Origin: Aurantiacibacter rhizosphaerae
GTDB taxonomy: Bacteria; Pseudomonadota; Alphaproteobacteria; Sphingomonadales; Sphingomonadaceae
Direction: 5' to 3'
Assembly: GCF_009807005.1 (NCBI RefSeq)
Contig: NZ_WUBR01000001.1
Coordinates: 62,001-126,000, forward strand
Length of the DNA: 64,000 nucleotides
Below, piece by piece: positions 361 through 6,017 of this stretch. The first letter of the stretch is position 1. The number at the start of each line of letters is the position of its first letter. The position numbers and the translations under genes are program-made. The notes below the pieces were generated by a model. The model saw only the letters and a program-made list of their open reading frames with translations, did not search any database and was not told the DNA's origin.

Positions 361-376
361 TGTTCCACGTGGAACA
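361..376. promoter_or_regulatory. parS-type ParB binding site 1
   Basis: TGTTCCACGTGGAACA is a perfect 16-bp palindrome with the CACGTG core and TGTT/AACA ends of parS centromere sites. It lies in the short gap between the mnmE stop and the mnmG start. ParB binds parS and spreads to form the partition complex moved by ParA. Only the match and the location are seen; ParB itself is not in the window. Confidence 0.85.
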
Positions 377-378
377 GG

Positions 379-1653
379 CTATTTCCCGATACAGAAGCGA
401 CCAAAAAGCGTGTCGAGCACGTCTTCCGTCGAAGTTCTGCCGACGAGCGCGTCAAAGGCCTGGCGCGCACGGCGAAGGTTCTCCGCGATAAGCAACGGAT
501 CGCGCTCGTCACGCGCGGTGGCCAAGGCTTCTGCGGCATCACTCAATCGCTCCCGCTGACGGGCATTCAGAACGGCGACGCCTGCCTTCGGCATCGCCGA
601 TCGAGCGACTTCAATCAATCTGGCGCGCAAGACCCCCATCCCCTCACCCGTATGGGCGGAGATTGAGATGTCAGGATTTGACTTTCGAATCAGGTCAGCC
701 CGGTCAATCTGCGCATCGATATTCCAGCTTCCAGCAGGAGCTGCGCACTCCTCACCCAGCCAGAGCACCAGGTCTGCCCTGGCGATCTCATCATGCGCGC
801 GTGCGATACCGATCGTCTCGATGGCGTCGTCGCCCTCTGCCCGCAGGCCGGCCATATCGGCGAAGGTAAAGGGTATGCCCGCAAGCGAGACGGATTGCGT
901 CAGAACATCACGAGTCGTGCCGGCTATATCCGCCGTAATCGCCGCCTCGCTCTCCACCAGCGCGTTGAACAAGGTCGATTTACCGGCATTGGGCGGCCCG
1001 GCCAGCGCCACACGAAAACCTTCTTTCAACGTCTCAGCATGCGGTGCGGCCATAGTCTCATGAAGGGAACCGTGGAGCGCAGCCAGCGAGTTTGCGAAGC
1101 TATCCGGCAAAGTCGACACATCGTCCTCGTCATCAAAATCGAGGACGGCCTCGCACAGAGCCGATAGCCGGAGCAACTCGACGCGCCATTCCTCGACTTG
1201 CCGCGATAGTGCGCCGCCTGCCATCGCCATGGCACTGCGCCGCTGAAACTCTGTTTCGGCTGATAGAAGGTCCGCCAGCCCTTCGGCCTCAGCCAGATCG
1301 ATGCGGCCATTTGCGAAAGCGCGGCGAGTGAACTCGCCAGGCTCTGCCCGCCGGCATCCGTCGATTTGACCAATCGCATGTTCCACAGCAGCGATAACTG
1401 CCCTGCCGCCGTGACAATGGAATTCGGCCAGATCGTCACCCGTCACGGAGTTTGGACCAGGGAAGTACAGCGCCAGCCCATCATCCAATGTTTCACGTGA
1501 AACACTGCGGAATGTCGTTCGCTTTGCCCGGCGCGGTGCAGGTATGCCGCCCGCGATTGTCTCCAAGACCGTGGTCACGGCCGGGCCGGTAATGCGGATA
1601 ACGCCTATGCCGGCAGGTGGCTGCCCGCTGGAGAGCGCGAAAATCGTGTCCAT
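379..1653 (-). CDS. mnmE: MnmE (TrmE), tRNA modification GTPase
   Basis: The 424-residue product is the GTPase partner of MnmG in forming the 5-carboxymethylaminomethyl group on wobble uridines. The N-terminal folate-binding region starts [20 protein letters not shown]. The G1 loop is GPPNAGKST near residue 217, the switch region reads AGTTRD, G3 is DMAGLR, and the protein ends FCIGK, whose Cys is the conserved C-terminal one. The G4 position, normally NKxD, reads DRAD here, so guanine recognition looks altered or relaxed. It is slightly shorter than the roughly 454-residue E. coli protein. The coding sequence also contains the second parS palindrome. mnmG follows at once on the same strand, presumably co-transcribed. 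Confidence 0.95.
1489..1504. promoter_or_regulatory. parS-type ParB binding site 2, inside mnmE
   Basis: TGTTTCACGTGAAACA is a perfect palindrome identical to the widely conserved parS consensus. It is embedded near the 5' end of mnmE, 1.1 kb from site 1. Two such 16-mers this close together are very unlikely by chance, which supports an origin-proximal partition locus. Confidence 0.93.
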
Positions 1654-4700: not shown

Positions 4701-5717
4701 TCAACCGCGGACGAGCTTCAGAAGATGTTCTACATGGGCGATAGGCGTTTCCTTGTCGATCCCATGGCCCAGATTGAAGATATGCGGACGCTCCGCAAAA
4801 GCGGAAAGGATGGTGCGAACGGACTCGTCCATCGCCTCCCCCCCGGACAGCAGCAGCATCGGATCGAGATTGCCCTGCACCGGCATATCGGCGGGCAGTT
4901 GTGCATTGATCCACGCAGGGTCGGTGGTTTCATCGATGCCCAGCGCATCAACTCCCGTTTCGCGGGCATAGGCCGGTAATTTCGCGCCAGCGCCCTTCGG
5001 AAATCCGATGACGGGGATGCCGGGCCGCTGTTCATGAATCGCGGCGGCGATACGGGCATTGGGTGCGATCACCCATTGTTCAAATTGCGACGGGCTGAGC
5101 GATCCGGCCCAGCTGTCGAACAGTTGCACAGCTTCTGCCCCTGCATCGATCTGGCCGATCAGATATTCGATACTGGCCGCCTCTATCGCGCCGATCAGCG
5201 ATGCGAAGGCCACAGGATCGCGATAGGCCAGCTTGCGCGCCGCGCCCTGGTCTTTCGAGCCCTGCCCCGCCACCATGTAGGTTGCCACCGTCCACGGCGA
5301 TCCTGCAAAGCCCAGCAAGGTGGTCTCTGGCCCCAGGCGAGCCTTCACTGCCGCCACGGTACGGTAGATCGCATCAAAGTGATGGAAGGCCCGCTCAAGC
5401 CCATCCCAGGCCCCATCCACCAATGGAGGCGCAAGCCGCGGGCCCTCGCCAGCCTCGAACCAGAGGTTCTGACCAAGGGCGTGCGGAACGATCAGGATAT
5501 CGGAAAACAAGATCGCGCCATCGAAGCCGAACCGGTCAATCGGTTGAATCGTAACCTCGGCCGCGGCTTCGCAATCATAGACCAGTTCCAGAAAACCGCC
5601 CTTCTGCGCGCGCAATTCGCGATATTCGGGCAGGTATCGACCAGCCTGGCGCATCAGCCAAACCGGCCGCCTTGCGGTCCGCTGGCCGGCAAGCGTTTCG
5701 AGGAGACAACCGGGCAT
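4701..5717 (-). CDS. hemE: uroporphyrinogen decarboxylase HemE
   Basis: The 338-residue cytosolic enzyme decarboxylates the four acetate side chains of uroporphyrinogen III to give coproporphyrinogen III. The signature PVWLMRQAGRYLPEYRE lies near residue 20, and later segments GFAGSPWTVATYM and FDSWAGSLS are also typical. I prefer the ATG at 5717 (MPGCLLETLAG) over an in-frame TTG at 5729. Its upstream region is the candidate chromosome origin, as in Caulobacter, where hemE borders the origin, so its promoter probably overlaps origin elements. Confidence 0.96.
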   Translation of the reverse strand: MPGCLLETLAGQRTARRPVWLMRQAGRYLPEYRELRAQKGGFLELVYDCEAAAEVTIQPIDRFGFDGAILFSDILIVPHALGQNLWFEAGEGPRLAPPLVDGAWDGLERAFHHFDAIYRTVAAVKARLGPETTLLGFAGSPWTVATYMVAGQGSKDQGAARKLAYRDPVAFASLIGAIEAASIEYLIGQIDAGAEAVQLFDSWAGSLSPSQFEQWVIAPNARIAAAIHEQRPGIPVIGFPKGAGAKLPAYARETGVDALGIDETTDPAWINAQLPADMPVQGNLDPMLLLSGGEAMDESVRTILSAFAERPHIFNLGHGIDKETPIAHVEHLLKLVRG

Positions 5718-5721
5718 CGAA

Positions 5722-5939
5722 GAGTCCAATCAAACAATAAATATATATTAATAGGATTTAGGACGTTGTTGGTCCTGTGGATATCGGGGATTGCGAGCCT
5801 GTGCCCGAATTCTCCCGCGTTGAGAACCCATTTCCAGCGTGGCGACTCATGCTTGGCGTTGAGTCAAACGAGTCTTCTCCCCGCTATCCCCAGACTGTTC
5901 ACAAACGGCTGCGAAGGCGCATGACTCGGCTCATGATTC
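5722..5939. promoter_or_regulatory. cluster of six GANTC (CcrM-type) methylation sites
   Basis: GANTC occurs at 5722-5726, 5844-5848, 5861-5865, 5870-5874, 5923-5927 and 5935-5939, with a seventh at 6047-6051 just inside ppsR. By base composition about one would be expected in this length. CcrM adenine methylation at GANTC links replication to the cell cycle in many alphaproteobacteria. The sites are seen; the methylation is inferred. Confidence 0.7.
5776..5784 (-). promoter_or_regulatory. DnaA box, one mismatch
   Basis: TGTGGATAT is the reverse complement of ATATCCACA and differs from the TTATCCACA consensus at the first base. It lies 16 bases from the AT-rich block in the hemE-ppsR gap, a sensible place for DnaA-driven opening. 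Confidence 0.6.
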
Positions 5940-6008
5940 CGGTTTGGATCGGGGGCTAACTTAACCGACAGCTTGTCCGCAGATCGATCCCGTGGTTTAT
6001 GCCTGTGC

Positions 6009-6017
6009 TTATCCACA
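6009..6017 (+). promoter_or_regulatory. DnaA box, perfect consensus
   Basis: TTATCCACA matches the DnaA consensus exactly. Its last base is the first base of the preferred ppsR start codon, so DnaA binding here would also cover the start of ppsR. Confidence 0.75.

What the first reader, a model, noticed from the sequence alone, without database searches (positions are those of the whole stretch)
5718..6017. Candidate chromosomal origin between hemE and ppsR
The gap has the neighbours of the Caulobacter origin (hemE on one side, the RP001/DUF299 gene on the other), an 88% AT block at 5728-5760, a perfect DnaA box TTATCCACA at 6009-6017, a one-mismatch reverse box at 5776-5784, and a GANTC cluster. 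The gene order is established in Caulobacter and Rickettsia; the boxes and AT block are seen here; origin function in this organism is inferred.
Basis: partly seen in the sequence, partly recalled or inferred. Interest (0 to 1): 0.75.

Follow-up and report, generated by a model that had tools for sequence, protein, structure and literature searches.

The report
Chromosome start site between hemE and ppsR
This 300-base gap is almost certainly where this bacterium starts copying its chromosome, at the place already known for its relatives; beside the melting zone it carries a three-base rhythm that resembles, but does not match letter for letter, the signal known from Bacillus.

Summary
The 88% AT block and six GANTC are unmatched in 13,046 sampled background windows; two near-perfect DnaA boxes flank the gap. 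All four parS matches of the draft lie 4-8 kb away. GC skew and KOPS turn near the locus, sharply or roughly, in five sampled relatives, two of them from a genus that lost ppsR but kept hemE and the box. The gap is 297-317 bp in 39 congeners. Such origins are known (Caulobacter, Rickettsia, Sphingopyxis): a new member of a known kind, but without CtrA consensus sites (0 of 39). New lead: between AT block and DUE-proximal box, alphaproteobacterial origins carry phased [T/A]NG triplets (28 of 35 anchored; shuffles 3.5), whereas the Bacillus-type middle-adenine rule fits 10 of 35 (shuffles 4.5). Alphaproteobacterial DnaA never has Asn/Gln where B. subtilis Asn187 reads that adenine (0 of 60), but 15 of 27 other members of the phylum lack it too: the protein link is only suggestive.

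The parts
5718..6016 (.). oriC: intergenic region between divergent hemE and ppsR
   Evidence: Gap of 297-317 bp in 39 of 39 congeners extracted; skew, KOPS and parS context
4701..5717 (-). hemE, uroporphyrinogen decarboxylase
   Evidence: TIGR01464, 381 bits
6017..6871 (+). ppsR (DUF299/RP001/COG1806), PEP synthase/PPDK regulatory kinase-phosphorylase
   Evidence: NF003742, 323 bits
5728..5760 (.). AT-rich block (29/33 A/T), candidate duplex unwinding element
   Evidence: Direct read; 0 of 13,046 background windows reach it
5760..5771 (+). Triplets AGG-ACG-TTG-TTG: four in-phase NNG triplets, candidate relaxed DnaA-trio (3'-GTT-GTT-GCA-GGA-5' read away from the box)
   Evidence: order- and class-wide triplet periodicity
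5776..5784 (-). DUE-proximal DnaA box ATATCCACA
   Evidence: CCTGTG at this place in 39 of 39 congeners
5785..5793 (-). Abutting second DnaA-like site CAATCCCCG (TCCCC core, 9 bp from the first)
   Evidence: TGTG followed by GGG in this register in 39 of 39 congeners
5844..5848 (.). GANTC (GACTC) within the conserved CGANTC block
   Evidence: 39 of 39 congeners
5722..5726 (.). GANTC
5861..5865 (.). GANTC
5870..5874 (.). GANTC
5923..5927 (.). GANTC
5935..5939 (.). GANTC
5875..5883 (+). DnaA-like site TTCTCCCCG (TCCCC core)
   Evidence: Core listed
5884..5892 (+). DnaA-like site CTATCCCCA; core TCCCCA equals the Caulobacter W-box consensus
   Evidence: W-box consensus from PMC4285127 (passage); 39 TCCCCA in 39 congener gaps against 11.4 (sd 3.2) in Markov controls
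5895..5903 (+). Weak DnaA-like site CTGTTCACA
   Evidence: Direct read; core listed; variable among congeners
5973..5981 (+). DnaA-like site TTGTCCGCA (two mismatches); its TTGTCC also sits where a -35 element would
   Evidence: CTTGTCC in 37 of 39 congeners
5996..6001 (+). TTTATG, 17 bp after TTGTCC: candidate -10 of a ppsR promoter (short or no leader)
   Evidence: GTGGTTTAT in 39 of 39 congeners, fixed distance in 37 of 37; not called by the sigma-70 scan; restricted to part of the family
6009..6017 (+). Perfect DnaA box TTATCCACA, overlapping the A of the ppsR ATG
   Evidence: core TCCACA 39 of 39
362..375 (.). parS GTTCCACGTGGAAC
1490..1503 (.). parS GTTTCACGTGAAAC, inside mnmE

Best explanation
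Window 5718-6016 is the chromosomal replication origin. Inferred mechanism: DnaA binds the abutting pair of reverse sites at 5776-5793 and, with help from the forward array at 5875-5903, 5973-5981 and 6009-6017, spreads onto the single strand of the G-phased triplet run (5760-5771). It thereby opens the AT block beside hemE, where helicase is loaded for bidirectional replication. ParB bound at parS 4-8 kb away segregates the new origins. GANTC methylation by a CcrM-like enzyme may mark replicated origins. ppsR and hemE are expressed outward from promoters in or next to the origin. Shown here: anatomy, conservation, parS/skew/KOPS context, presence of dnaA and of a RAMA-domain protein. Inferred: every protein-DNA step.
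For: Motif content unmatched in background for AT block and GANTC. Fixed-length, block-conserved gap in 39 of 39 congeners extracted. All parS matches within about 4-12 kb of the locus in 8 of 8 genomes. On sampled stretches, GC skew and KOPS turn between 1.82 and 1.93 Mb in G020 (locus 1.925 Mb), GC skew turns between 1.49 and 1.505 Mb in the ppsR-less G178 (hemE ends at 1.501 Mb), and G016, G004 and G167 agree more roughly. On the window's contig, sampled KOPS are 0 forward: 8 reverse left of the window and 57: 4 to its right. hemE and ppsR are divergent neighbours in 39 of 40 fetched regions of the order outside the genus, 20 of 24 ppsR loci in the rest of the class and 76 of 80 loci of genome contigs. 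Published precedent at the same place: Sphingopyxis (PMC4741004, passages), Caulobacter and Rickettsia (PMC1914354, passages). RAMA domain (as in CcrM) found once in each of 4 genomes; of 14 control genomes only Caulobacter rings.
Against: Skew is weak and stretches were sampled, not the whole chromosome. Inside the window KOPS polarity turns only between about 15 and 39.5 kb, right of the gap, and 4-kb skew bins are noisy. G016 has almost flat GC skew and its KOPS turn only between 1.33 and 1.65 Mb (locus 1.307 Mb); in G004 the turn is only roughly placed; in G167 GC skew is already positive 12-32 kb before hemE and KOPS there rest on one site on each side. Contigs C4-C6 (about 208 kb) were not sampled. 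By count of sites with up to two mismatches the gap is not extreme. Conservation of a divergent promoter region could account for part of the block pattern. No experiment on this organism is known to me.
Confidence: 0.93

Rival explanations
1. The gap is only a divergent hemE/ppsR promoter region; the conserved blocks are promoter and leader elements and the DnaA boxes regulate these genes.
For: TTGTCC-17-TTTATG has fixed spacing in 37 of 37 congeners where both parts were found and ends just before ppsR. It is absent in the 10 ppsR-less genomes, though it is equally absent from 10 of 20 family regions and 22 of 22 regions of other families, most of which have ppsR, so its loss cannot be tied to loss of ppsR.
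Against: 10 of 10 ppsR-less g12 genomes keep hemE, an AT block and a TTWTCCACA box in front of maf. parS lies beside the locus in the two of them tested and skew turns there in G178. The triplet run and paired sites recur across the class.
Confidence: 0.03
2. The true origin lies elsewhere in the ori-proximal region (for example nearer the parS cluster or around window 15-40 kb) and this gap is a passenger of conserved synteny.
For: KOPS polarity in the window turns between 14.9/33.8 kb and 39.5 kb, not at 5.9 kb.
Against: KOPS are sparse there (13 in 64 kb). No sampled background window reaches the gap's AT or GANTC values. In G178 GC skew turns between 1.49 and 1.505 Mb with hemE at 1.500-1.501 Mb.
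Confidence: 0.04
3. A CtrA-gated Caulobacter-type origin.
For: Same gene neighbours (PMC1914354, passages), a TCCCCA W-type site, GANTC cluster.
Against: No exact TTAA-N7-TTAA in any of 39 congener gaps and no TGATCCACA G-box in the window's gap or the other gaps listed; ctrA is dispensable in Sphingomonas melonis according to PMC8116508 (passage). Degenerate CtrA sites were not assessed.
Confidence: 0.05

Closest known systems
Caulobacter crescentus Cori (hemE/CC0001)
   Same: Gene neighbours, AT-rich block, strong plus weak (TCCCCA) DnaA sites, parS within about 8 kb (PMC1914354, PMC4468827, PMC4285127; passages); GANTC in Cori is recalled
   Different: No exact CtrA consensus site and no TGATCCACA G-box found; IHF site not assessed
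Predicted Sphingopyxis/Sphingomonadaceae oriC (PMC4741004, passages)
   Same: Same locus, conserved DnaA boxes and DUE; also computational
   Different: In Sphingopyxis loci L292 and L301 a TTGGC...GCCAACA element stands where this genus has the DUE-proximal CCTGTGGA box
Basal unwinding system of Bacillus subtilis (DnaA-boxes 6/7 + DnaA-trios; PMC8287927, PMC10721633; passages)
   Same: Order AT-rich, triplet run, DnaA sites; guanine-phased triplets of the same polarity; DnaA Glu228 kept and Arg202 replaced by Lys in 60 of 60 parsed alphaproteobacterial DnaA
   Different: Middle base of the triplet is T, A or G instead of a conserved A (here T, T, C, G); residue 187 is Y/F/V/L/I/H instead of Asn

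Membership tests
Alphaproteobacterial hemE/ppsR-type oriC | Intergenic between divergent hemE and COG1806/ppsR | tested here: met
   order- and class-wide
Alphaproteobacterial hemE/ppsR-type oriC | Cluster of DnaA boxes and AT-rich DUE beyond chance | tested here: met
   (near-perfect boxes and AT block; the count of weaker sites alone is not extreme)
Alphaproteobacterial hemE/ppsR-type oriC | Replication polarity turns at the locus | tested here: met
   on sampled stretches of relatives, some only roughly; own contig consistent; kilobase precision not reached in the window
Alphaproteobacterial hemE/ppsR-type oriC | parS/parAB region close by | tested here: met
   parS: 8 of 8 genomes; parAB genes not searched
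Alphaproteobacterial hemE/ppsR-type oriC | Autonomous replication or marker-frequency maximum | not testable with these tools
   Needs culture or sequencing reads
CtrA-gated Cori (Caulobacter, Rickettsia) | TTAA-N7-TTAA CtrA sites in the origin | tested here: not met
   0 of 39 congener gaps, exact consensus
CtrA-gated Cori (Caulobacter, Rickettsia) | G-box TGATCCACA | tested here: not met
CtrA-gated Cori (Caulobacter, Rickettsia) | IHF site | not tested
   Too degenerate for a useful scan here
Basal unwinding system (BUS) as defined in PMC8287927 | DnaA box next to the trios, with or without a second box | tested here: met
   Abutting sites 5776-5793; same register in 39 of 39 congeners
Basal unwinding system (BUS) as defined in PMC8287927 | At least three NAN triplets within 16 bp of the box | tested here: not met
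   Window: none within 16 bp; by my own count a TAT-TAA-TAG-GAT run ends 18 bp away inside the AT tract. 5 of 39 congeners meet the rule
Basal unwinding system (BUS) as defined in PMC8287927 | DnaA-dependent strand separation needing the triplets | not testable with these tools
   In vitro assay needed

The most novel reading that the evidence does not exclude
Alphaproteobacterial origins, this one included, use a relaxed DnaA-trio in which guanine is fixed at every third base and the middle base is free (T/A-N-G, i.e. 3'-GNT/A-5'), read by a DnaA whose Asn187-equivalent is an aromatic or aliphatic residue while the guanine-contacting residues are kept. This would be the deviant trio whose existence PMC8287927 only suspected.
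Probability: 0.5. Interest if true: 0.66.

Novelty: new member of a known kind. Interest (0 to 1): 0.45.

Why it matters
It places the origin of a genus for which the paper searches made here showed no experimental origin, and shows through a natural ppsR loss that the origin does not need its usual neighbour. If the relaxed trio is real, the single-stranded code by which DnaA opens origins differs between bacterial classes, can be tested with one strand-separation assay, and would explain part of the 15% of genomes in which no trio was found (figure from PMC8287927, passage).

Tried and rejected
A first script stopped on a regular expression for the ppsR start; it was corrected. The sigma-70 and terminator scan found nothing, so the ppsR promoter rests on conservation and spacing only. 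I first took the absence of GTGGTTTAT in ppsR-less genomes as support for that promoter; a recount shows it absent also from 10 of 20 family and 22 of 22 other-family regions, so that argument is dropped. Rfam found nothing in the window. The G-phase test fails in the window's own genus as a group (lag-3 z -0.1): the run is degraded there; 15 of 39 congeners carry at least three phased triplets. The idea that loss of the amide at position 187 is peculiar to Alphaproteobacteria was rejected as stated: 15 of 27 other members of the phylum have A, T or S there; only the bulky Y/F/V/L/I/H residues were confined to the alphas in this sample. A CtrA-gated origin was rejected on the exact consensus. 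The relaxed triplet rule was formulated after viewing the order-level set; the class-level set was fetched afterwards and is the nearer thing to an independent test (11 of 14 anchored, 6 of 20 not anchored; by eye L258, L267 and L273 were anchored at the wrong place; one search also misplaces several class windows). Two family gaps (L126, L127) were dropped from the lag test. The single scan of genome contigs named sphingomonad neighbours but does not tell which genus the window is from.

Full report
Observation. The gap 5718-6016 lies between hemE (minus strand, ATG at 5717) and ppsR (plus strand, ATG at 6017). In 661,841 sampled bases of the same genome, no 300-bp window of 13,046 (overlapping, 50-bp steps) has six GANTC or a 33-mer with 29 A/T, and 0.061% have two DnaA boxes with at most one mismatch; counting sites with up to two mismatches, 0.29% of windows reach the gap's four. 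Five perfect TTATCCACA occur in the whole draft.

Context. The window is C1:62001-126000 of a 3.42-Mb draft in six contigs; the titles of its nearest relatives in genome contigs are Erythrobacter, Novosphingobium, Sphingomonas and kin. All four matches to GTTNCACGTGNAAC in the draft lie at C1:59923-63503, 4-8 kb from the gap; in seven other genomes every match also lies within about 4-12 kb of the hemE locus. Sampled GC skew on C1 is negative in three of three stretches left of the window and positive in 14 of 16 to its right. KOPS (GGGNAGGG, recalled motif) are 0 forward: 8 reverse on the left and 57: 4 on the right; contig C2 holds the opposite, terminus-type turn. In the complete relative G020 the turn lies between 1.82 and 1.93 Mb with the locus at 1.925 Mb. 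G016 shows it in KOPS only, between 1.33 and 1.65 Mb (locus 1.307 Mb), and G004 only roughly. Against precision: inside the window the reverse KOPS continue to 33.8 kb and forward ones start at 39.5 kb. dnaA is at C1:818418, about 750 kb away; PMC8116508 (passage) reports that dnaA is not conserved near ori in Sphingomonadales.

Conservation. ppsR was found in 40 of 40 genomes of the genus; the gap could be extracted from 39 (in G029 the match starts at a contig edge; it was not fetched) and is 297-317 bp long. Present in 39 of 39: CCTGTG beside the AT block with a GGG-type core 9 bp further, CGANTC, TCCACA at the ppsR start and GTGGTTTAT. The perfect box TTATCCACA is in 8 of 39. TCCCCA, the Caulobacter W-box consensus (PMC4285127, passage), occurs 39 times in 39 gaps against 11.4 (maximum 22) in Markov controls. 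[quoted passage not shown]

Wider synteny. ppsR was found in 136 of 147 genomes of the order, some of the genus included. Of 40 regions fetched outside the genus (20 of the family, 20 of other families), 40 have hemE and 39 show the divergent pair (in L127 the piece held too little of ppsR). In the rest of the class 24 of 39 genomes have ppsR, and 20 of those 24 have hemE divergent within 1.5 kb. Of 80 loci from genome contigs, 76 show the pair, three do not and one is too short.

Natural experiment. Ten of ten genomes of genus g12 in the search lack ppsR but keep hemE. Their hemE upstream regions keep an AT block (18-20 of 22) and one TTWTCCACA box each, and maf (46-58% identity to the window's Maf) follows directly, as also in L321 and L336 (Sphingomonas sp. 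BN140010). GC skew turns at hemE in G178; in G167 the support is weaker (skew already positive at 2.04-2.06 Mb, hemE at 2.071 Mb; one KOPS on each side). parS is beside hemE in both. So the origin does not depend on ppsR. GTGGTTTAT, with TTGTCC at a fixed 17-bp spacing, is best read as a ppsR promoter of this clade; it is absent in g12 but also in 10 of 20 family and 22 of 22 other-family regions, so its absence in g12 proves nothing.

The triplet run. Between the AT block and the DUE-proximal box the other-family gaps of the order show a three-base rhythm of G (lag-3 z 5.9, lag-6 4.9, lag-9 4.5; n 22) and of T (lag-3 6.6); the family gives 4.1 (n 18) and g12 2.8 (n 10) for G; in the window's genus the G rhythm is absent as a group statistic (-0.1, n 39). 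In 42 gaps of the order and class the lag-3 z for G is 9.8, against a control mean of -0.27 and maximum of 3.34 for random windows of the same gaps; shuffling ignores relatedness. With the box as anchor, at least three phased [TA]NG triplets within 16 nt occur in 17 of 21 order-level and 11 of 14 class-level gaps (shuffle means 1.8 and 1.7; one of 22 and six of 20 could not be anchored). The published middle-adenine rule fits 6 of 21 and 4 of 14 (shuffle means 2.2 and 2.3). In the window's genus the figures are 15 of 39 (shuffles 2.7) against 5 of 39 (1.1), and the window itself has AGG-ACG-TTG-TTG. In runs of three or more the middle base is T 41, A 38, G 24, C 0. Polarity agrees with PMC10721633, where T16-A17-G18 of trio 1 is followed by G19 and G20 toward the duplex (passage; my inference).

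The protein side. In PDB 8BTG (B. subtilis BUS complex) Asn187 contacts the middle adenine and Arg202/Glu228 the guanine (PMC10721633, passages). The window genome's DnaA has Val, Lys and Glu there (alignment). In the 60 of 63 alphaproteobacterial DnaA loci that the script could parse, position 187 is never N or Q: Y 27 and F 2 of 29 in the rest of the class; Y 10, F 8, L 2, H 1 of 21 in other families of the order; V 7, Y 1, F 1, I 1 of 10 in the window's family. Glu228 is kept and Arg202 is Lys in 60 of 60. Result against a simple reading: in 27 non-alpha members of the phylum (30 loci were fetched for 60 genomes, best scores first, three of them alphas) position 187 is N 8, Q 4, A 7, T 6, S 2. 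PMC8287927 (passage) itself suspected trios without the middle adenine. In the held library, searches for DnaA-trio with Alphaproteobacteria (1 paper), with Caulobacter (15 of 16 listed) and with basal unwinding system or origin (20 of 43 listed) showed no title that reports this; only passages of the named papers were read, and figures and supplements were not seen.

Mechanism and verdict. The best explanation is a DnaA-dependent bidirectional origin, built as AT block, triplet run, abutting reverse DnaA sites and a forward array, near parS. CtrA gating is unlikely: 0 of 39 congener gaps hold the exact consensus. GANTC enrichment and a RAMA-domain protein in 4 of 4 genomes (of 14 controls only Caulobacter rings) suggest methylation marking, inferred only. 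As a locus this is ordinary; PMC4741004 (passages) made the same case for Sphingopyxis. The relaxed trio is the part worth an experiment.

Noticed in passing
Genus g12 genomes (L096-L105); L321, L336: ppsR is missing from 10 of 10 genomes of one genus (and next to hemE in two further loci) while hemE and the origin box stay; maf now abuts the origin.
   Followed up: yes
L289, L292, L301, L302, L321, L336 and others (22 of 80 loci of genome contigs); g12 7 of 10; family 3 of 20: In sister groups (Sphingopyxis, Sphingobium, some Sphingomonas, g12) a TTGG...TTGCCAACA inverted-repeat element stands where the DUE-proximal CCTGTGGA box is in this genus; whether TTGCCAACA is a DnaA site is unknown.
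   Followed up: partly
DnaA loci of family f1 (L188-L190, L216-L219, L221-L224) against other families: DnaA of the window's family scores about 462-526 bits against TIGR00362 while most other families of the order and most class genomes score 534-584; several other alphas are as low (413-498). The initiator seems to evolve fast in this family, where the triplet run is also weakest.
   Followed up: partly
L256 (gap, near the ppsR side): A parS-like GTTTCACGTGAAAC lies inside the origin gap itself in one genome of the class outside the order.
   Followed up: no
L345 (titled Microvirga sp. SRT01) and L353 (titled Bacillus sp. 2B10): Both records carry sphingomonad-like hemE (66% and 63% identity to the window's), so their titles look wrong or the records are contaminated.
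   Followed up: no
L120 (G103): One family member has a 976-bp gap between hemE and ppsR instead of about 300.
   Followed up: no
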